A stretch of DNA of 64,000 nt from Spinacia oleracea (Eukaryota > Streptophyta > Magnoliopsida > Caryophyllales > Amaranthaceae), in the NCBI RefSeq assembly GCF_020520425.1, contig NC_079490.1, positions 4,588,001 to 4,652,000 on the forward strand, read 5' to 3'. Of the stretch, positions 24,301 through 63,021 are shown piece after piece. The translations under genes and the position numbers were made by a program. The number at the start of each line of letters is the position of its first letter. The first letter of the stretch is position 1. The notes below the pieces were generated by a model. It ran no database searches, was not told the DNA's origin, and was given only the letters and a program-made list of their open reading frames with translations.

Positions 24301-27300
24301 ATGGCTGCAACCACCTCACCAATGGCTAGCCAATTAAAGAGTGGGTTCACCACTAAGGCTCTTGTGGTTCCTAAGGGCATTTCTGGTCCTGCTTTGAGAG
24401 GGTTCCCTTCTCCTAGGAGGCACACTTCTTTTACCGTTAGGGCTATTAAGACCGAAAAGGTAATTTTACTATTCGACCAGTCTTATATGCAAGTGATTCG
24501 TGCAAAAATGTATAAGAAAAAGAATTGTGTTATTATATCTTATAGCATAAAGTAACTGATTTTCCGCATGTTTACATATTCGTAATTGATTGGGATATTT
24601 GAAGGGTGTGTTTCAATGTTGTAATTTGGTTTAATTTTTTAATTAATATTAGCACTCGTATAAATTTGTAATGAATAAAGTAATTTAACAGGGGACATTA
24701 AAAAGTCAATAACTCGAGAGTTTTCTTATAAAATAAAGATGTTCGATTCAATATCACTAAGTTTTAAGCACGGTCGTATACAAATGAAGTACATATCACT
24801 AGTTTTAGTGACACTATATATTATCCTTACGCTAAGTAAGGTGTGACATGGGCAATCATTGATATAATTATGTGAATTAGTAGAGATTTAGAATGATAAT
24901 CATACTAAATTAAGAGTGGTAATATTTTGGTACGCACGTTGAATATGATTATGACATTAATTCGGTACTTTTGACCTAAAATTCGGTGATTTAGATCTTT
25001 GATGATGTATGTTTGCTGACATGTCTGGTGTTTTTTTTTTTTGGTATCACCAGAAATATTATTTTATGGAGTGACTGTTTTTATGTCTCCCTTATTTATT
25101 CTATCCAAAGTTTGTTTTTTGTGGTTGTGAATTTGTGATGATTTATAGGGACAATTACATATTCGGCCATTGCGAACCCTCATATTTAACTATTAATTTC
25201 TAGGATTTTTTGGATAAAACCACCTTTTAAAGTTCAACTTTTTGAAATAACCACCTTATATGTTTTTTTTTTTTTAAAAACCACCTTAAACTTTCAAAGT
25301 TTAAGAAATCACCACCTTCTGTCAACTTCCGTCAAATGTTCCGTCAATGGGGCCCACATCCAACGGCCAAACATTCGGAAGTTAATGGAACATTTGACGA
25401 AAGTTTTGACGGAAGTTAACAGAAGGTGGTGATTTCTTAAACTTTGGAAGTTTAAGGTGGTTTTTAAAAAAAAAAAACATATAAGGTGGTTATTTCAAAA
25501 AGTTGAACTTTAAAAGGTGGTTTTATCCAAAAAATCCTAATTTCTAACTAGGTGCAAGTAAATGTTATAAAAAGTTGATATCGTGAACTAACAATATCCC
25601 TCGTAAATATGTTTTAGTTTATGTACAATTTATCAAAGCCGGTCAAAATAAAGTACACAAGCAATTCAAAAGAAAAACGTTGCAAATAATATAGAATGGA
25701 GAAAGTATAATAGATGGGATAAGGGGAATTCAAACTTATAACCTATACAACGACCTTAAGTGTTAATCACTAAACCAAGACGTTATTGATTTTAAGTTTT
25801 GTTTTTATATAATTGGTTATATTTATAGATACTCCATTTGTGGAAAATAATATTCTTGTCTAGATTTAACTTTCTTATGTAATAGCAAATCGAAATCATA
25901 AACTTTATAGTGAATCGGAAAGAGAAATCTATTTGGAAAAAGTTTGATTCTTGAAATCAGAGAAACAATGATCTTTCAATTAATCGAATAAGAAGTCTTT
26001 TTAAGTACATGAAAGGAGATCAAGACCAAACCAATTTATTGAACTTGAAAGAAACTAACAAAAAGATGACATAAAGTTGGGTCAAAAGTGGCAAAATCTT
26101 CTAAGGAGATTATTTAGTTAAGAATCAAAGGCTAAAAGTATTATTTAGTTAAGAATCAAAGGCTAAAAGTATAGAGAATCAAAGATTAGGGAAGATTGTT
26201 GCTTGAGGGGAGGTGGGGTTGTATAAGGTAATGCAAACTATTTGTTAAGTAGTTGTCTAGTTGATTAATTCCCCTTTTAAAAAAGTATAGGCGTATCTGA
26301 ACTGAAAACACAAGAATTTCTTATCAAGTTACAGTTGTAAATAGTCTTACAAGAATGAGATTGCTAAGGGAAAACAACGCGTAAAGGACTTACATTGGTA
26401 AGCGTGAAAAAGTAAAGTGTAATCATTATTATCGAAACAGAGGGAGTAGCTCTTAGAAACTCAATTGATCACCCATAGTTTAGGGTTCCATTAGTTTGAA
26501 CTAAATTTTATCAATAAACTTTTATTTTCGATATCAACTTGTTTATCTTATACAAGTATGGAGTTGAGTTTAAAGCTAAGGCTGTCAAATCGAGTCATCA
26601 GATGGTTAAAGATCGGATATAGTCGATTTTTTTGTACTGGGTCATTGTATCATACATGTTGAAATGTGTAATCTTTTTTAACGGGTCATTCAGATGTCAG
26701 TCGGGTCGGGTCAATTTTTAACCGTCCGGGATTTGCCAATTTTGTTTACATCATTGCTTTTTACATCTTCAAAAAAAACACTTAAAAGAAAATCAAAATC
26801 AGAACTAACATTGGTGCTTGTTTAATCTGATTTGGGCAGCCAACATACCAAGTAATCCAGCCTCTAAATGGAGACCCATTCATTGGTGGGCTTGAGACCC
26901 CAGTAACATCCAGCCCATTGATTGCCTGGTACCTATCCAACCTCCCAGCCTACAGGACTGCAGTCAACCCACTTCTACGTGGTGTTGAGGTGGGCTTGGC
27001 CCATGGGTTTTTATTGGTAGGCCCATTCGTGAAAGCCGGCCCATTAAGAAACACTGAGTATGCTGGTGCTGCAGGTTCCTTGGCTGCTGCAGGACTTGTA
27101 GTGATCCTTAGCATGTGTTTGACTATGTATGGCATTGCTTCCTTCAAGGAGGGAGAACCGTCTATCGCCCCGGCTTTGACTTTGACCGGTAGGAAGAAGC
27201 AACCCGACCAACTCCAATCCGCGGACGGGTGGGCCAAGTTCACCGGAGGGTTCTTCTTCGGTGGTGTTTCCGGTGTTACATGGGCTTACTTCCTCATGTA

Positions 27301-27331
27301 TGTTCTTGACCTTCCTTACTACTTCAAGTGA
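24301..27331 (+). CDS. psaL: Photosystem I reaction centre subunit XI (PsaL) precursor, 216 aa
   Basis: Two exons: 24301-24459 and 26840-27331, with a phase-0 GT..AG intron of 2380 bp. Exon 1 encodes 53 residues of a serine-, threonine- and basic-rich chloroplast transit peptide with almost no acidic residues; cleavage is expected near RAIKTEK. Exon 2 encodes nearly all of the mature protein: a stromal [17 protein letters not shown] segment, then three hydrophobic helices at about 102-119, 129-151 and 188-209, ending DLPYYFK. Known: PsaL sits in the thylakoid membrane. It forms the contact for photosystem I trimers in cyanobacteria and the docking side for state-transition LHCII in plants, together with PsaH and PsaO. 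The sequence agrees with my memory of the spinach protein; no alignment was run. Confidence 0.98.
25203..25537. mobile_element. Foldback Mutator-like element, 335 bp, in the psaL intron
   Basis: Nearly perfect inverted arms of about 150 bp start GGATTTTTTGGATAAAACC. They are flanked by a perfect 9-bp duplication TAATTTCTA (25194-25202; 25538-25546). The arms repeat ACCACCTT phrases separated by A/T runs, and the centre is GGGGCCCACATCC-like. There is no coding capacity. Good arm identity suggests recent insertion. Confidence 0.93.
25712..25790 (-). mobile_element. Possible SINE fragment in the psaL intron
   Basis: On the minus strand GGTTTAGTGATTAACAC (A-box-like) is followed at tRNA-like spacing by GTTTGAATTCC (B-box-like). 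Ends not defined. Confidence 0.4.
26111..26172. repeat. Two-copy 31-bp tandem repeat in the psaL intron
   Basis: TATTTAGTTAAGAATCAAAG occurs at 26111 and 26142 with the same following bases. Confidence 0.85.
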
Positions 27332-32444: not shown

Positions 32445-34778
32445 TCACCAGTAATCTCCACAAGAACAAACTCCATTCTTGAAATAGTGAAATCTACGAA
32501 TATCTCTGACAATTATTTCCCTGCCTAAAAGCTGAGAAGTAAACTTAAGGAAATTATGGCAATCTGTACAAACTCGAAGATTTTTCATGACCCGAATTGG
32601 TGTTACACTGTTCGTGTTAATAATACCATACACAACAGCAAGCTTTTCACTATGATAACGAAGAAACATTTCCTGTTGTTCCTCTTCTACATCTTGTGTA
32701 ACCTGCTCTAAAGTAGTGGAATACCCTATCTCCTTTAACCTACCAATTAGGTTGTCCAAATAAGAATATATATCAGCTTCTTGTGGATGAGACCTATCAC
32801 CAATCACAAAACTATGAACTTGGTTGTTCAGTTGTATCCAAGATTGACCTGGGTGTTTCCTAACCCCTTTCTTCTGCATCAAACTCCTAACTTTAGCAGA
32901 TTCTTCCCATCTGTTACTGGTAGCACACATGTTTGACAGTAAAACATAAGGTTCTGCATCCAGTGGTTCAAGTTGAAGCAACTTTTCTGACACCCATTTT
33001 CCCAAATCATAGTTTTTGTGAAGCCGACAAGAGGATAAGAATGCCCTCCATACTGAACTAATATGAGACAGATTGTTCTCATAAATGAAATTCTTTATCT
33101 CATCCAAGTATCCAGCACGGCCAAACAGATCAACCATGCAAGTAAAGTGTTCAATCCCGGGGTTAATGTTGTACTTTTCTTTCATTACAGTGAAATAATT
33201 GCGCCCTTCATCAACTAGCCCGGCATGGCTACACGCCGTTAAAACAGCCACAAAGGTTACCTCATTTGGTTGAATGTCATCATCATCAATCATCAATTGA
33301 AAAAGTCTAACTGCTTCTCTACCAAACCCATGGAAAGCATTTCCATTTATTATCGCAGTCCACAAAATAGTGTTCCTTGTGGTGGTTTTGTCAAATACTA
33401 TCAGAGCATTCTCTAAACATCCACATTTGGAATACATATCAACCAACGAAGAGCAGAAAACTATATCAAATTTGTGTCCAATCTTATGTACGAGGCCATG
33501 TATCTGTTCACCAAAACTCAACAGCCCATAATCAGCACATACAGAGACAATAGTAGTGAGAATATATTTGTCAACTCCAATTCCTTCAGAAACCATATGA
33601 CAGAACATTTCTAAGGCTTCTTTGAACCTTCCATTTTGGGAATATCCTGAAATCATAGAGCTCAAAGAAACAGTATCCGACATTAACTTTTCACCATTTA
33701 TGTTCGAGCTTTGTTTTCGAGGAGGTATTTGCTTAAACACAATTGAAGCCTTATCAATTAACCCACACTTGGAATACACATCAATCAACGAAGATCTTAT
33801 ATACTCGTTATCACATAATCTAAGTCTGATCAGTCGAGCATGTAACTGTGAACCAAGCTCCAGTATGGACAAAGAAGAAACCAAAGTTAATGCTATAGTA
33901 TACGTAAATTCATTAAAGCACGCTTGTTCTTTAACCATTTCATAAAGGAGTTCTAATGCTGTTCTTTCAAACCCATTTTTCATCATACCTGATATAACTG
34001 TGTTCCAGGTTGCAACATCTTTAGTAGTCAATCTTCTGAATAAAGCAAGAGAACTCTTCACATCACCACTTTGAATGTTAGCACTTATCATTATGTTACA
34101 CGAAACAGTATCAACATCATCTGTGAACTCAAACAACTTGTTAGCATAATCAAACTCTTTAGATTTCACATAAAAATCAATAATAGAGTTCCTCAACACA
34201 GCATCCAAATCAATCCCATTTTTCAGTATCCACCCATGAATTGCCTTACCATTATGAACCAAACCTATGGAAGAACAACACTTAAACACACTCGAAAGTG
34301 TAAACCCGTTTGGACAAACTCCCTCCCCTAGCATTCGAGCATAATAATCCAACCCAACTCGAAACAATCCAATTCGAGCAAAACCCGAAACCAGGACCGT
34401 CCAAGTACGAACATTTCTCTCAGACATTTCATCAAACAGCTTCTGGGCAGAACCCAAATCCTTGAATTTCGCATAAAGACTCAACACATAGTTCCCAACA
34501 TTCAAATCAACAATCGAACCACTCTTGATTACCCTCCCATGAAGGTTCTGAAGAGTTCGTTCATCCTTCAAATTATCAATAAACCCTAACAATTGGGGTT
34601 GTTTATCATGATGATTAGAGGAAAGAGAAGCATGGAATCGTTGAATTAGTTTCCGGGTAATCTCAATCTGGGTTGAATTTACGACGGCAGAACAAATTAC
34701 GGCATTAAAGGGATTGAAACAATGGTTCAAAGCGACGATGCAATTGAAGAACTTGGAACGTAAAAGAGTACATTGCAT
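32445..34778 (-). CDS. PPR protein, PLS class with E, E+ and DYW domains, 777 aa
   Basis: Single exon. The first ATG is at 34776-34778 (MQCTLLRSKFF); an upstream in-frame TTG is not a plausible start. The N-terminal 40 residues are basic, hydroxylated and poor in acidic residues, fitting organelle import. A series of pentatricopeptide repeats follows, with typical elements such as GKAIHGWILKNG, ATWNTVISGMMKNG and FVAVLTACSHAGLVDEG. The E/E+ region leads into the C-terminal DYW deaminase domain. That domain carries the zinc motif HSEK, the CxxC of CTDCHNF and the terminal CSCGDYW. Known: DYW proteins bind one or a few sites in chloroplast or mitochondrial RNA and convert C to U. The usual RFHHF before the end reads RFHYF here. 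Target RNA unknown. Confidence 0.96.
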   Translation of the reverse strand: MQCTLLRSKFFNCIVALNHCFNPFNAVICSAVVNSTQIEITRKLIQRFHASLSSNHHDKQPQLLGFIDNLKDERTLQNLHGRVIKSGSIVDLNVGNYVLSLYAKFKDLGSAQKLFDEMSERNVRTWTVLVSGFARIGLFRVGLDYYARMLGEGVCPNGFTLSSVFKCCSSIGLVHNGKAIHGWILKNGIDLDAVLRNSIIDFYVKSKEFDYANKLFEFTDDVDTVSCNIMISANIQSGDVKSSLALFRRLTTKDVATWNTVISGMMKNGFERTALELLYEMVKEQACFNEFTYTIALTLVSSLSILELGSQLHARLIRLRLCDNEYIRSSLIDVYSKCGLIDKASIVFKQIPPRKQSSNINGEKLMSDTVSLSSMISGYSQNGRFKEALEMFCHMVSEGIGVDKYILTTIVSVCADYGLLSFGEQIHGLVHKIGHKFDIVFCSSLVDMYSKCGCLENALIVFDKTTTRNTILWTAIINGNAFHGFGREAVRLFQLMIDDDDIQPNEVTFVAVLTACSHAGLVDEGRNYFTVMKEKYNINPGIEHFTCMVDLFGRAGYLDEIKNFIYENNLSHISSVWRAFLSSCRLHKNYDLGKWVSEKLLQLEPLDAEPYVLLSNMCATSNRWEESAKVRSLMQKKGVRKHPGQSWIQLNNQVHSFVIGDRSHPQEADIYSYLDNLIGRLKEIGYSTTLEQVTQDVEEEQQEMFLRYHSEKLAVVYGIINTNSVTPIRVMKNLRVCTDCHNFLKFTSQLLGREIIVRDIRRFHYFKNGVCSCGDYW

Positions 34779-36067
34779 TGTATGAATTTCAAACTTCAAA
34801 GGAAGTATGTTTTAATCAAACTTTGTAGTTCCTTTTGTTGAGAATTGTCAGCTGCAAATTGCTAAAGTAATCGAAAGGAGAGAGACGAATTGCAGCAAAG
34901 GTTCAAGCTGTTACCCAGTTTTCTCCCGCCTTAATTAGTTTGATTTAAGAAAGACCCAAATGCATTTGACAAATAGGCAAAAATTGTTCTGTTTTTGTTA
35001 AACTAGATCCGTACTCATATATCTAGACTTGGCAAAATGGGTCTGAACCCGATTACCCGATTTGATTGACCCGATTATGACCCAAAACCATGATCCAAAG
35101 TTAATCCAAAATCTGAAAATGATCTGAACCAAAATTGAATATATATTTGAAATTGGCTTGACCTCGATAAGACCCTATACCTATATTGACCCGAACCAGG
35201 TAACCAACAACATCGACCTGAATCAAAATAATGTATTGAATTAACTCGAATCGCCCGCCCCACATACTAGCTAGTTCTCTACATCGTGACTAAACCTGCA
35301 AATGGGTCGTTTGAATAGGATTCGAATCAGATCATTTATATTCGGGTCGGGTCATTGAGATGGGCTCAAACATTGAGCTATAAAAAAAAACATACCAAAT
35401 ATTACGGGGTAATCGATCAATTACAAAATCAATTAACCTATTGTGAGGTGATAGAAAGAAACCGAAAGTTTTACTAACAGATAGAAAGTTTGCAAAACAT
35501 ATATATATTACTCATATTGAATTGTAGGGAAGAATTACAATCTGAAGGTAAATATTTATAGGGAAGCTTGTTACTATTGTAGTATAACAAATTTGACTAT
35601 TTACTACAATGTGATTCTCAAGTGAATTAACATGGGGCGCTACTATTAGTTTGCAGGACATTCATCATACATCGTCTATTTCTCGTAAATTCGTAACATA
35701 ACCAACAATTTTTTGTTTTGTTTTGATAAATCCAATTAACCAATATTTGAAATAGAAGCAATGGAGAAATCAATTGACAATTGCCTATAAGAGAAACCTT
35801 CATATTGCTCAACTGTGTAAATCAAACTGCAGTTCAACTAGTTGCTTTGAAGCACTAGCACACATTAGCTATGGGGATTTAACTGTTTATGGAGTGAACT
35901 TTCTGTAATTATTATTAGGACAAACTAAACTATGAATCATTCAATAAAAATAGACAAAATAATTATAATCATCTCTACAATTTTACTGCATCAGCATCAC
36001 TAATGGAGTTTAGTAATGTCTAATCTCATTCTTATACAGTTGTACCAGGAAATTGTTTCTAATAAAA
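34779..36067. other. Intergenic between PPR and DPH5
   Basis: The PPR leader and promoter occupy the first few hundred bases. Bases 35025-35370 contain GACCCGA/TCGGGTCGGGTC phrases of a decayed repeat. The remainder is AT-rich without a recognisable gene. Confidence 0.4.
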
Positions 36068-45082: not shown

Positions 45083-46609
45083 CTAGACATTATTAACTGG
45101 TGTTGGTGTGCTATCTTCTTCTTCTGTAACAGAAATTACTTTCGAGCTTCTCTCATTCCGGCTGCCTTCCGCGAACTTCATGCTTACCCTATGAAGCCCT
45201 TGCTCCTGCTCTTCAGCATCCCATTCCCTCATGTAGTAGTCTTCTTCTGTGACATTTGGTTTTGGACCGCAAAACATACCGCCCCACTGTGGGAAGTTTA
45301 TGGTACCTAAGCTAAGGGTACATGCTATGATCACAATACCCATGTAAGTTAACCCGTGTTCTATTTTGAATTGTGATCCTCTAAAGAAAATCACTTGACA
45401 TATCACTGCACCCGCATTTCCACCTGCTCCAGACAATCCCGAAACCACGCCCAATGATCTTCTGGAGACAAAAGGAACGACCCCGAATGTGAGTCCTTCA
45501 GCTGCTTGAACTAAAAAGGAGAAGATCATCATAACAGCAATGGTGGAGCTTAAAGTGTTCATGCGTCCCATAACGATACACATTACACCACTTAGTGTCT
45601 GCACAGTCCACCAACCCCATAATCTACCCCTCATCCCGAACTTCTTCGCCATGAAATCGGAAAACCAACCACCGGAAGACCTGGAGAAGATGTTAACCAT
45701 CCCGAAAAGAGCACCAACAATCCCTGCTAGGTTCAGGTTCAGGTTGAATCTGTCATAGAAGTAGTAAACAACAACGTTTGTTACGGCTAGCTCAACCCCG
45801 AAACAGAACCCGTACCCTATAGCAGTAATCCAGCTCCTGTAATTTGTGACTGCATGGTATACAATCTTGGAAGCTTTGTCTTTGTGCATTGCACCAGATT
45901 TCTGCATTTGCAGGAAGTTTCCGTCAGGAAGATCCTGCCCGAAAAGCATGACTGCATAAGCCGAAAACATTTGTAGGCCGGCGGGGATGAAAAACGCCAC
46001 CCTCCACGCCGTGAACGGCGTGTCGGCCGGTGTTTTATTAAGGATAAAGCTATAAAGAAACGGCATGACTAAGTTGGCTACACCTCCGCCGAGGTTGCCC
46101 CACCCGCCCGACTGCCCGTTCGCAAGCCCGACTACTTTCGGAGAGAACATGCAACTCATCCAGTATTGGGTTGACACAAATGTAGCCAATGAAAAACCAG
46201 TGAAGAACCGCATTATGAAAAACGCTGTAGGCGAACTGGCCATTGAAGAGAGGAAAACAGCAGGGACTGTTATGAAACAGATTGTTGCAGCAGCAAGACG
46301 CGGGCCCACCATGTCACAGGCGGCACCTAAGGCGAGACGGGCGAAGATCGCCCCGGCTACCGAGCCAACACCGGCATTACCAATGTCATTGGCGGTTAGA
46401 TTGAGGTTGTCACGGATTATGGGTAAGAGAGGTGGTGCAGCGAAAGTTGATATGAAACATGTGAAGTATGTAAACCAACTCAAATGGAATGCTCTCATAT
46501 GAGGCTTTGCTACAGAGAACAGAGGAAATATCATTGCCTTGTTCTCTGTATCCACCGGTAAATCTCCGAACTTTTTTGTTTCGAACTCATCATTAACTCT
46601 AGTAACCAT
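45083..46609 (-). CDS. NRT2: High-affinity nitrate transporter, NRT2 family, 508 aa, intronless
   Basis: Single open frame with ATG at 46607-46609; an upstream in-frame GTG is not a plausible start. The cytosolic N-terminus is followed by about 12 hydrophobic segments of the major facilitator fold. The family motif DMVGPRLA follows helix 2, the nitrate signature GGWGNLGGG lies in the first half and SGAGGNAGAV in the second. The C-terminal tail is charged and serine-rich (KFAEGSRNERSSK) and probably cytosolic. Known: NRT2 proteins co-transport nitrate with protons at the root plasma membrane, usually together with NAR2/NRT3, and are induced by nitrate. No intron interrupts the frame although the paralogue at 63 kb has one. 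Confidence 0.97.
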   Translation of the reverse strand: MVTRVNDEFETKKFGDLPVDTENKAMIFPLFSVAKPHMRAFHLSWFTYFTCFISTFAAPPLLPIIRDNLNLTANDIGNAGVGSVAGAIFARLALGAACDMVGPRLAAATICFITVPAVFLSSMASSPTAFFIMRFFTGFSLATFVSTQYWMSCMFSPKVVGLANGQSGGWGNLGGGVANLVMPFLYSFILNKTPADTPFTAWRVAFFIPAGLQMFSAYAVMLFGQDLPDGNFLQMQKSGAMHKDKASKIVYHAVTNYRSWITAIGYGFCFGVELAVTNVVVYYFYDRFNLNLNLAGIVGALFGMVNIFSRSSGGWFSDFMAKKFGMRGRLWGWWTVQTLSGVMCIVMGRMNTLSSTIAVMMIFSFLVQAAEGLTFGVVPFVSRRSLGVVSGLSGAGGNAGAVICQVIFFRGSQFKIEHGLTYMGIVIIACTLSLGTINFPQWGGMFCGPKPNVTEEDYYMREWDAEEQEQGLHRVSMKFAEGSRNERSSKVISVTEEEDSTPTPVNNV

Positions 46610-46778
46610 AATGATCACGATATTAGTTAATCCGAATGATTGGGGTCGGCTAATATGCTAGTTTTTGTGGTATATGACAATGTCAAGAATTGATATTTGT
46701 TTTTGTTTTTTGTGTTGTTTAGGAAAGAAGGTATGTATGTGAGTTTGAAGATGGGAAAATGTGTTGAAGCAAGGGGAG

Positions 46779-57660: not shown

Positions 57661-58002
57661 GGGTGATGATAAAGGTCGCAAGTTGCGACAACATTTAGTT
57701 GTCGCAATCTTACGTGTTGGAGTTTAATTGGTACATGTATGCGCCACGTAGGCTATGCGTCATCATGATATTTTTACTATCAATGCAATATTTTTACTAT
57801 GAAATTATGTTAATACGGTAATCAATATAAAGAAGGAAACAAATTAGATTATTAAGATTTTCCTACCTTTTTTTGAAACATGTATAATAGAATATACAAG
57901 TTAAATATTTTAATTTCCTATTTAAATCGCGACACATAAACATGTCATGTCATCATTGTGACACGGCTTAAAGGTCGCATGTTGCGACCTTTATCATTTT
58001 CG
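57661..58002 (+). mobile_element. 342-bp Mutator-type MITE, copy 3
   Basis: A perfect 9-bp duplication TTAGAGGTT lies at 57652-57660 and 58003-58011. It begins GGGTGATGATAAAGGTCGCA and ends GCGACCTTTATCATTTTCG, in the same orientation as copy 1. Confidence 0.95.
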
Positions 58003-58306
58003 TTAGAGGTTTGAACATTTCATAAAGGTAATGGGAGTGTTTGGTTAGGAGAGGTAAGAAAGAGATTTTGGGATGACAACTTTGTTATGTTGGAGATTTT
58101 TGCATTAGGTGTTTGAAGAAGTGAGTGTAAAATGACAACTTTATTATAATATTGTCTAAAATTACAACTCTTACCAACATGGCAACATACATCACTTTTA
58201 TGTCAATGTCTTTGATGATCTCTGTGACATCTAATTTCCCAAATATTTTATACAAACAACTAATTCAATCAGGTTGTTAAAAATTAACAAACACATATAA
58301 TTAATA

Positions 58307-58593
58307 CTCCCTCCGTCCAGATTAGTTGTTACACTTTCCTTTTTTGGCCGTCCCAGATTAGTTGTTACACTTCTAAATTAGGAATGACCCCACAGCTATT
58401 ATATTGTCTCTCTCTTCCCACAAAATTATTTTTTGTCCCCACACCCCCTCTCATTCAATTAAAAAAAAAATACCCCACTAACTTCTACCACATCTACTTT
58501 TTCAATAAAATAACAATTGATAACCAAACAATCACTTATCACCTAAAACTATGTGCAAAGGTAAGTGTAACAACTAATCTGGGACGGAAGGAG
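58307..58593. mobile_element. Stowaway-like MITE, 287 bp
   Basis: Ends CTCCCTCCGTCCAGATTAG and mirror CTAATCTGGGACGGAAGGAG, with TA at 58305-58306 and 58594-58595. AGTTGTTACACTT is mirrored by AAGTGTAACAACT. Confidence 0.92.
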
Positions 58594-58724
58594 TAATAGT
58601 TAGTCAAACCAGCTAATTATCGAACACATATATTATAAAATTAAATTAGATTTTGGAATATCACATCAAAGTGCAAAATATAAAAGGCCAGAGGTTGGGG
58701 TTGGTTAATGTGGACGTTTATGTA

Positions 58725-60613
58725 GGAGTAAATAGGTCTGGAGGTCCCTAAACTTTGCCAAAAGGAGCATTTAGGTCCCTCAAAATGGATGGAAAACGCT
58801 GCTTTTTGGCTTCTGTTACTAACGTCTGTTAAATGAATTAAAAATAAAGGCAATTTAATATAAAAGGCAGAAAAGGACAAAATAACAGTTACTTTTACCT
58901 ATAAATAATTTAAAAATAAAAGCAAATGCATTTAAGTTAGCTTTTCTACATAATCATCTCTATGTTCCTTCTTCTCCTCCACTCATCACGTTTCTTCAAC
59001 TGGGAATCCCAGCAGCCCAACTTTTCTCACTCCTCCATTTCTTACCACTCTATTCTAAAATACCTTTCTCTTTCTCGTCAATTCAACTCCTTAGAGAACC
59101 TTCTTAGAGAGGCCAATTCAACCGCCCTGGTATCGCTTCCCTCGTCAAATCGTAGAAATCACATGAAGCTTGTTTTTCATTGTTGCTTAATATGTTGGTT
59201 CTTAATTTTTAATTTTTGGGATGGTCTTCTAATAATAGAATTGACTAGTTCACCAATAATTAAGCAATGGTACTAGAAATAAAACAAAGTGAAGACAATG
59301 TTCAGGGCGCAAAATCGCAATTAACTAGAAAGCGATCAAATTTGTGCGGCAGTATCTCCTTTGAGCTTTTCGGAATTGGGATTTGAAAATAGTCAAGGTG
59401 TTTTCTTTTTATAACTCCTTTGTCTTTCTCTCTCATACAATTCTGCAACCTTTTTCATCTTCCACCTTTTTTCATTTTAATCTTCTGCTCTGTAAGTTGC
59501 AATTCTGAAGTGGGTTTTTAGTGTTGTGAATTGGGAAGCTCTGAATTGTTTGTTTCTAAAGGAAATTGGGGAATCTTTTTTTAATTGTTTATTTAGAAAA
59601 TGGGAAATGTGTATTTTTGCAGTTTTTTTTCCTGCAATTTTTGTTTCATAGTGAAGTGTAATCTTCGTTCTGGGTTCTGAATTTTGTTTTAGGTTTTTAG
59701 TTGATGATTGAATGCGCTATAAAAATTAGAAGTAAAAACAGGATTTTGTTAAAAAGAGAAGAAAAATCGAAAAGGGTAATTGAGAAATATGATTTAATCA
59801 AGTGGGTCAATGAGAACTTACAAGAACATCAACTGATCTGAGCTCTTCCGCACAAATTGAGAATCGATGCTTGTCCACAATCTTAATATAGAGTAATTAA
59901 TAAAAATAGCCTCTGTTTTTTCTTCTCTTTTGTCTGTTTAGAAAAAATATATGGACTGAATTATGTGAATTCGGTGGAATAGATTCAAATTATGTGAAAA
60001 GAAATTAGATTAGGGTGCAAAGTCGTCGAGTAAAGCAAAACTTCGCCATTTATGGGAAGAAAAAACTTTTAAAACAGGGGTTTTTATCAACAGTGGAGGA
60101 GTTTGGGGGTGTACAACTGAGACATTGAGAACGAAAATCAAAATGCTAGTTTTGATTAGAGTTGAGAGAATTCATAATTGGGGGTTTAAGGTGAGAGGAA
60201 AACAGGGGAGGGGAGAGATAAAATGGAGTTCGGAGGTTTGCTGGGGACGATTGAATATGACTCAAGGAGAATTTTGTGCCAAAAAAAATTAGTGGAAGAA
60301 ATCAGGGAGGGGAAAGATGAAAAGTTAAAACATGTACATGGAGAAAAAGCCATGTGAAAAAGCCAAGTAAGTTGAAAAAGCTAACAAATAATCAAGAGCA
60401 GCTGTTTTTAATCATTAATACACATGTAATTTAATTTCTCTTTTTTTTAAAGCAGTTTTATTATTATTTTATTCAATTTAACGGAAAGACAAATGGTGTT
60501 AACAAAAGTAGCGTTTTCCATCCATTTTGAGGGACCTAAATGCTCCTTTTGAAATTTGAGGGACCTAACTGCTCCTTTTGGCAAAGTTTAGGGACCTGCA
60601 GATCTATTTATTC
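58725..60613. mobile_element. Pack-MULE carrying a PPR gene fragment, 1889 bp
   Basis: Inverted ends GGAGTAAATAGGTCTGGAGG and GAATAAATAGATCTGCAGG continue for over 100 bp. They are flanked by a perfect 9-bp duplication GTTTATGTA (58716-58724; 60614-60622). The right arm has an extra copy of the AAAAGGAGCATTTAGGTCCC phrase. No transposase is visible. The interior holds a PPR-like coding fragment (58962-59276) and then intron- or leader-like sequence of unknown source. Confidence 0.9.
58962..59276 (+). pseudogene. Captured fragment of a P-class PPR gene
   Basis: The frame starts at an ATG and encodes SSRFFNWESQQPNFSHSS and then SYHSILKYLSLSRQF, NSLENLLREANS. This matches the usual early region of P-class PPR proteins (FFNWAS.QPGF.HS..SYH.IL..L...QF). 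After SLPSSNRR the likeness ends and the frame runs out in AT-rich sequence. Only about 55 residues are preserved, without any full repeat array, so it is not a working gene. It differs from the intact DYW-class gene at 32-35 kb, so the donor lies elsewhere. Confidence 0.7.
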
Positions 60614-60622
60614 GTTTATGTA

Positions 60623-63021
60623 GTTGACTAGTTGTACAAATCACAAAAGACAAAAGTCATTTTTATTAACAAAGGTTCACTCAAATTTGTCATTCAATCA
60701 ACGGCTCACGTCGGTCAAATGGTAATGTTTGATTACTCGGTTTAAATACTTCGTACATATGACGTGTGCTTTTATATTTTAAAAATATATACATACTCAT
60801 GGTATATTACACCGTAACATTGAAAATATCGATCTATACATATTAAAATGCGTTTCTAAAAAAGTTTATGTAACACATGACGATTTGCTTATCAGTGATT
60901 CATTCCATGCGATCTTTACAGATTAAAAAATGTCAAATAGTTTGCATAAGGTAACACTCAACCTTGTGTTTAAAGGATAAAACACATGACACGTTCCATG
61001 TTATCATTACGGAAAAAAAAGTAAATGTAAATAGTATTAATGTATTATCTCGGGATATCACTTAGGGCCAAAAACTAGTTAAACTTTAGGAGAAGGCGTA
61101 AAAAAAAAAAGACTAAGTAAACTCTTTCCCATACAAAAAAAAAAGAAAAAAAAAGAAAAAGAAAACACAAACCCATTAACAACGAGCACAAATCTTGTCC
61201 CTTTTTGAAGGATTCTATGACAAAGTTTGGATTTACCATAATTCAGCCCAGAAAGTTTAGTAAAAACCTTTTGTCCATTGCCTTTTATAACGGGATATTT
61301 ATTATGACTATCCCTTTCATGATAGCCTTAGTTGTAACAATTAAAGATATCCTACCGTAACTCGTAATTGAGCTTTTAGGATGAAAAATTCATGTCAAAT
61401 ATTATTTAATTTCTTGCATTGGATCTAACCCGCACTGTAATTAGCTTAAAATTAATTTATGTGTATGCTCTCAGTCGCTATGTCCCCAAATAATCTTCCT
61501 TCTTATTTCGATGTCCTACTTTTGAATGTTATGGTGCATGTTACACCCTACATAATCCTTTGAATTCTCGATTGTGATCTGAGGACTGTGTGATTTTCGA
61601 TTAACAAAAATAAAAGGTTTATCACACTTTCTCTTACTTTCTTCCTCCAAATAAGTTTCATGAGCACAAATTCAAGTCTGCAAATAACAAGAGAGTCAAA
61701 CTATATGAACAAATCATATTTTATTGATTTTTCTGTATTTGGGTAGAATCTCTAATATTTGCTTCTCTGATTCAATCTCCACTTTGAATTTGAATTTGAA
61801 TTTGATTTGGCTCACTGAATGGTTTCATTTGTGCTTGAATAAGGGTCTTCGGCTTAATCTCGTTCAAAGATGTTGATGTATAATAAAACTAAGGATAATG
61901 TTTTGGACGAATTCTACTTAGAGTCGAACTCGTCGAGGGGAGGTGCTAACAATCGAGATCAGCAAGATATGTAATACTAGGATTACGAGAGCAAGGCTGA
62001 GAAAATATGATTATATTATTAAGCAGTTTGAATGTATGATAGAACATGATTGACAAATATTACAAACGCTAATTTATACATCTTTCCCTACTTTGTAACG
62101 TACAAGATGATTAACTACCATCTTAATGATCCGGCTCCATGAGTTAAGCCTGACCATTTAATTAATATTTGTAACTGTCGTTCCTCTTCTAGCCGTTGCC
62201 TTGATTGACAATCTTAATGATGTTTATATCTTGTTGGCTGCCACGTAGTCTTTAGAGTAGGTCTAATACGCCCCGCCATAAGGAGAGTATTTTTTAATAG
62301 AAATTTGAGGGCGCACGCGGAAGTTTTGGTGGACCTCAATATAATAACAAAATCACATTGTTATTATCATTGATTACAGTAATAAGAATTGTACAATAAT
62401 ATTTGCGAGAGCCCATGTCTCTCACTTATCTCTTTGGTAGAAGCCTTGTTTCTACCCTCACTCATATTTTTACTGGAGCTCTTTTGATTAGCTTACCCCT
62501 CAACTTATGCATACAAGATATTTATAGTGGGTGTATCCTAATTTCTAGATTTTTCTACACTCGTCATTTATCTAGATTTTTCTTACTAGATTTTTCTTAA
62601 GTAAATTCTAGACATTACTTTAGCTAGATTTTTCTACACACTTTACTATTAGATTTTTACGAAGTATATAGTACATTCTAGATTTAGATTTTTCTAGATT
62701 AACATTTTAACATTTTTCTCCCCTAACGGATAATGCATGGAAATGAATGACCAATTTAGAGACTCTGTATTGGTCATTCCGTTCTCTATGTTGCTTTACG
62801 TATTGTGTCTAAAAATCCTCGAAGCTAATGAAAATAGAACAACCAATATTGGTTTATGTATTGTGCATAAATATCGTCTAAGCTAATAAGAATGGAGCAA
62901 GCAATCACACACTTGAGAACTAGAACAAATTTTCTTCTCATAGATACATTCTTGACAAGTCAAAAAATTTATGCATTACAAATATGAGTTAATAAAGAAG
63001 CTAATTAACCTAAACAACCAG
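60623..63021. other. Spacer downstream of the second NRT2 copy
   Basis: AT-rich. Bases 62400-62710 are pyrimidine-rich with repeated CTAGATTTTTCT, possibly an LTR fragment, but no ends were confirmed. No gene seen. Confidence 0.4.

What the first reader, a model, noticed from the sequence alone, without database searches (positions are those of the whole stretch)
58725..60613. Pack-MULE that has captured part of a PPR gene
Seen: long inverted ends, a perfect 9-bp duplication GTTTATGTA and an internal frame with a clear P-class PPR start (FFNW..SYHSILKYLSL). Known: Mutator-like elements can carry gene fragments (Pack-MULEs). Inference: a fragment of a PPR gene elsewhere was duplicated into this element. 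PPR genes are numerous, so shuffling of their start could feed new transcripts or antisense control.
Basis: partly seen in the sequence, partly recalled or inferred. Interest (0 to 1): 0.75.

Follow-up and report, generated by a model that had tools for sequence, protein, structure and literature searches.

The report
Jumping gene carrying PPR-gene fragment
This is a plant DNA transposon whose lineage copied the start of a PPR gene (a family of RNA-binding proteins) and scraps of other DNA and then moved around the genome; the process is known in plants, and this is one more example.

Summary
The element spans 58726-60613; its target-site duplication is a perfect 10 bp (GTTTATGTAG), not 9. Its inverted ends are far above chance and contain a ~29-bp tandem unit. 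The host genome holds two other near-full-length copies (99% and 93%), each with its own perfect 10-bp duplication, a relative split by an LTR retrotransposon, and other places sharing only end sequence. So it is a mobile, non-autonomous element of Mutator-like structure. The PPR reading is supported, but indirectly: the fragment itself gives no PPR profile hit, while sister element L007 continues it, in the same frame past one TGA, into sequence that does. The best match outside the family is an unbroken 617-codon frame on C3, 81% identical over 54 residues. I could not fetch that locus because the genome machine stopped answering. Other interior stretches match two other loci (91%, 87%), so the element looks like a mosaic. 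Relative to L007 a 25-bp gap shifts the frame after about codon 52 of its 104-codon ORF. Pack-MULEs, and PPR capture by a plant DNA transposon, are already published. New member of a known kind; expression and function untested.

The parts
58716..58725 (.). left target-site duplication GTTTATGTAG
60614..60623 (.). right target-site duplication GTTTATGTAG (10 of 10)
58726..58806 (+). left terminal inverted repeat, lacking a ~29-bp tandem unit that the C1 and C3 copies have
60504..60613 (-). right terminal inverted repeat with two tandem units (60526-60551, 60555-60580)
58807..58953 (+). left subterminal backbone, shared with L008, whose interior did not match (L008 match 58742-58953)
58962..59276 (+). 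104-aa open frame; in frame with L007's PPR frame for about its first 52 codons; same length in the C1 and C3 copies
58983..59164 (+). PPR-derived fragment, approximate limits: start = first residue matched to the C3:71.59 Mb frame, end = last clear alignment to L007; 25-bp gap relative to L007 near 59116
59206..59684 (+). segment 91% identical to C3:153866481-153866970 (L004); no other part of the element, ends included, matched in the 3,490 bp held there
59735..60024 (+). segment 87% identical to C5:10660319-10660623 (that locus was not read)
60063..60307 (+). inner right part shared with the C6 relative (match 60063-60595, 87%) but outside the L008 match
60308..60503 (+). right subterminal backbone shared with L008 and other places that match only this end

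Best explanation
A non-autonomous Mutator-like DNA transposon (Pack-MULE) whose ancestor copied the 5' part of a PPR gene. The lineage also holds other genomic scraps, and it kept transposing, presumably with a transposase supplied in trans. SHOWN: ends, 10-bp duplications, copies at several loci, a fragment shared with a PPR-bearing sister element, interior matches to two other loci. INFERRED: transposase in trans, capture by repair-type copying, the order of gains and losses. My default is that the captured piece is a passenger without protein function; a short fusion transcript or siRNA against the donor is possible but unproven.
For: Near-full copies at C1:107.66 Mb (99%) and C3:20.49 Mb (93%). 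Perfect 10-bp duplications in 4 of 6 members examined, 9 of 10 in one more. Window vs C1: 13 substitutions in 1,888 aligned sites; vs C3: 73 in 1,856. Ends far above chance. Sister L007 has the same left end and PPR start. Then, in the same frame past one TGA, L007 has PPR 5.4e-6 (26.7 bits, cut-off 25) and PPR_2 1.8e-6 (28.4 bits, under its cut-off 30), and in another frame PPR_2 2.2e-5 (24.9 bits, under the cut-off); 2 of 5 L007 frames scanned hit PPR families. Best match outside the family: C3:71589818-71589979, 81% over 54 residues, 617-codon frame without stops. No transposase among the 4 open frames scanned, of 17 listed for 58000-61500.
Against: The fragment alone has no PPR profile hit and no PDB hit. 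The candidate donor could not be fetched, so its PPR identity, DNA identity and freedom from element ends are untested. Its match runs to the window residue coded at 59142-59144, past the 25-bp gap; I did not see that alignment, so whether the window lost or L007 gained the 25 bp is open. No autonomous MULE with these ends was identified, so the superfamily rests on structure.
Confidence: 0.9

Rival explanations
1. A decayed PPR gene at this site that happens to lie between inverted repeats, without transposition of the interior.
For: Only the fragment's relation to a longer PPR-like frame.
Against: The whole ~1.9-kb unit, ends and interior, occurs at two other loci, each bounded by its own 10-bp duplication.
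Confidence: 0.02
2. A mobile element as described, but of another terminal-inverted-repeat superfamily than Mutator.
Against: 10-bp duplications and a right end of ~110 bp fit the MULE description (9-11 bp duplication, TIRs typically 100-500 bp; PMC3310237, passages).
Confidence: 0.06
3. The 104-aa chimeric frame is an expressed and selected new gene.
For: The frame has the same length in the window, C1 and C3 copies; window vs C3 shows 4 substitutions in 312 sites inside it against 69 in 1,544 outside (Fisher p 0.006).
Against: 3 of the 4 substitutions are non-synonymous. 22 of the 69 outside lie in the two terminal bins, where tandem-unit alignment may inflate differences; the test was not repeated without them. 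The C6 relative has a TGA in the matched stretch. The contrast was chosen after seeing the data.
Confidence: 0.05

Closest known systems
Pack-MULE family PM-ZIBP of tomato, with tandem TIRs (PMC3310237; passages, section 3.2)
   Same: A Pack-MULE with a gene fragment, repeated units in its ends, several copies at distinct loci
   Different: Here the repeated unit is ~29 bp within the TIR rather than a whole duplicated TIR; the fragment is PPR-derived; three near-full copies found against 14
CACTA family Cactavine-5 of grapevine, two copies with part of a PPR gene (PMC2528002; passages)
   Same: A plant DNA transposon carrying part of a PPR gene; the authors already suggested antisense regulation
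   Different: CACTA superfamily, part of the coding sequence plus 3' untranslated region, beside a transposase; here the 5' part, in an element with 10-bp duplications and no transposase found
Rice Pack-MULEs (as described in passages of PMC8903248, and PMC13317346)
   Same: Fragments from one or several host loci between MULE ends
   Different: Rice and maize Pack-MULEs prefer GC-rich sequence (stated in PMC3310237); not measured here

Membership tests
Mutator-like element (MULE) | 9-11 bp target-site duplication | tested here: met
   10 bp: perfect in 4 of 6 members examined, 9 of 10 in one, right end lost in one
Mutator-like element (MULE) | long terminal inverted repeats (typically 100-500 bp) | tested here: met
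   110 bp at the right end; 81 bp at the left of this copy, which lacks a ~29-bp unit present in the C1 and C3 copies
Mutator-like element (MULE) | mobilised by a MURA-type transposase of an element with matching ends | not tested
Pack-MULE | carries a fragment of a cellular gene and no transposase | tested here: met
   PPR-derived start, indirectly shown; no transposase hit in the 4 open frames scanned
Pack-MULE | intact parental gene elsewhere, without element ends | tested here: inconclusive
   617-codon open frame with an 81% match over 54 residues, but the locus could not be fetched
Pack-MULE | element has transposed after capture | tested here: met
   Copies with the fragment and their own 10-bp duplications on C1, C3 and C6

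The most novel reading that the evidence does not exclude
One transposon lineage preserves successive states of gene capture. A more diverged sister (L007) holds a longer PPR piece followed by a second captured piece resembling a RADIALIS-type MYB. The window, C1 and C3 copies keep only the PPR start, followed by other scraps, and have an ATG in frame with that start which L007 lacks. That would be a stepwise record of capture, loss and replacement making a new 104-codon frame.
Probability: 0.35. Interest if true: 0.4.

Novelty: new member of a known kind. Interest (0 to 1): 0.25.

Why it matters
It is a compact, fairly recent family in which a donor candidate, a longer relative and short relatives can be compared, so the order of capture and loss can be tested. 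It changes no general view: capture by Mutator-like elements (PMC3310237, passages) and capture of part of a PPR gene by a plant DNA transposon (PMC2528002, passages) are in print.

Tried and rejected
PPR assignment by profile or PDB from the fragment itself failed; the best Pfam hit was an unrelated family under its cut-off. No Rfam match at E up to 1 in 58600-60750. I considered that the C6 relative, 13,050 bp from end to end, was the autonomous partner. Its length comes from an inserted LTR retrotransposon with 1,414-bp LTRs; the longest frame in the two MULE parts beside it is 106 aa, and those frames were not scanned against families. Selection on the 104-aa frame: contrast p 0.006, not taken as evidence of protein function because 3 of 4 changes are non-synonymous. 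Papers: 4 held papers contain both 'Pack-MULE' and 'pentatricopeptide' (listing; of these I saw passages of PMC2528002 only). 'Spinach' with 'Pack-MULE' gave 1 paper, on sucrose metabolism genes (listing). Spinacia oleracea with Mutator-like, transposable elements and genome assembly gave 0. I make no claim that this family is absent from print beyond these searches.

Full report
WHERE. The window lies in a genome of 894,210,420 bases in 242 contigs, at C4:4588001-4652000. From its size and large contigs I think it is spinach; that is recall, not a tool result.

OBSERVATION. The element runs 58726-60613 (1,888 bp). Its termini are GAGTAAATAG...CTATTTATTC, flanked by GTTTATGTAG on both sides, a perfect 10-bp duplication. 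The inverted ends are real: the best ungapped inverted score is 47, against a maximum of 20 in 60 Markov resamples. The ends contain a ~29-bp tandem unit. The right end has two copies. The left end of this copy lacks one that the C1 and C3 copies have. The C6 relative has three on the right.

COPIES. The genome search scored 40 of 559 candidates and listed 120 matches, so counts are lower bounds. Of the 40 scored candidates, 3 are near-full copies: the window itself, C1:107.66 Mb (99%; 13 substitutions in 1,888 aligned sites) and C3:20.49 Mb (93%; 73 substitutions in 1,856 aligned sites, gaps apart). At a recalled rate of about 7e-9 per site per year these separations would be roughly 0.5 and 2.8 million years; the rate is from memory. 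Two candidates (L005, L006) are the two halves of one C6 relative, which shares 58726-59126 and 60063-60613 and is split by an LTR retrotransposon. One is L007 (C3:114.19 Mb), which shares the left end and right subterminal part but has lost its right terminus. Two match only inner segments (L004; C5:10.66 Mb). The other 32 match only about 280-330 bp at the right end. I examined one of these 32 (L008, C3:92.86 Mb): it has both ends (58742-58953 and 60308-60613 match). Duplications: window, C1, C3 and C6 10 of 10; L008 9 of 10; L007 not assessable.

PPR CONTENT. The frame 58962-59276 codes 104 aa. By itself it hits no PPR profile and no PDB chain. The case rests on two results. (a) A genome search with the 69 residues of 58941-59147 found 20 places at E up to 1. 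Three are the near-full copies, one is the C6 relative and one is L007. The best of the rest is C3:71589818-71589979, 81% identical over 54 residues, in an unbroken 617-codon frame. The other 14 are weak (E 2e-4 to 0.76), in frames of 264-1045 codons whose identity I did not check. (b) L007 continues the fragment in the same frame, past one TGA, into residues that hit PPR (5.4e-6, 26.7 bits, cut-off 25) and PPR_2 (1.8e-6, under its cut-off), with a further PPR_2 hit in another frame (2.2e-5, under its cut-off); 2 of 5 L007 frames scanned hit PPR families. The P class was not tested.

MOSAIC. The window aligns with L007 through the PPR start but has a 25-bp gap near 59116, so one of the two has left the PPR frame; clear alignment ends near 59164. 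L007 stays in frame with its PPR hits, so I take the window to be the shifted one. But the match to the C3:71.59 Mb frame runs, in the window's frame, to 59144, and I did not see that alignment; this point is open. Beyond it, 59206-59684 matches C3:153866481 at 91%, and no other part of the element matched in the 3,490 bp held there. 59735-60024 matches C5:10660319 at 87% (not read). L007 has, after its PPR piece, a stretch whose two frames both have the RADIALIS MYB chain 2cjj as best PDB match, at consecutive residues 15-44 (E 0.16, weak) and 44-80 (E 0.002). Pfam gave no MYB hit there. This is suggestive only.

FUNCTION. Best supported: a passenger fragment in a non-autonomous transposon. 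The frame keeps its length in the C1 and C3 copies, and substitutions against C3 are fewer inside it than outside (4 of 312 vs 69 of 1,544, p 0.006). But 3 of the 4 are non-synonymous, 22 of the 69 lie in the terminal bins, and the test was chosen afterwards. Expression, siRNA and antisense effects were not testable.

KNOWN WORK. MULEs have 9-11 bp duplications and TIRs of typically 100-500 bp, and a tandem-TIR Pack-MULE family is described in tomato (PMC3310237: passages, section 3.2). A grapevine CACTA family carries part of a PPR gene, with antisense regulation suggested (PMC2528002: passages). Pack-TYPE elements with pieces from several loci are known (PMC8903248: passages), as are siRNA effects of captured pieces on donors in maize (PMC13317346: passages).

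LIMITS. So the donor, the C5 locus, wider C3 flanks and any autonomous partner were not read.

Noticed in passing
58307-58593: A ~287-bp element with ends CTCCCTCCGTCC...GGGACGGAAGGAG flanked by TA, resembling a Stowaway-type MITE (name recalled), just upstream; read by eye.
   Followed up: no
32445-34811 (-): An uninterrupted 788-codon frame that reads like a full PPR protein with a DYW-type end (recalled motif). It is not among the 20 places matched by the captured fragment.
   Followed up: no
45083-46657 (-): 524-codon frame resembling a high-affinity nitrate transporter (recalled).
   Followed up: no
26831-27331 (+): 166-codon frame resembling photosystem I subunit PsaL (recalled).
   Followed up: no
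L007:911-1113 (-): Possible second captured piece in the sister element: best PDB match RADIALIS (MYB) in two frames at consecutive residues; no Pfam MYB hit.
   Followed up: partly
L009/L010 (C6:31875554-31888603): LTR retrotransposon with 1,414-bp LTRs, 99.9% identical, inserted in the C6 relative.
   Followed up: partly
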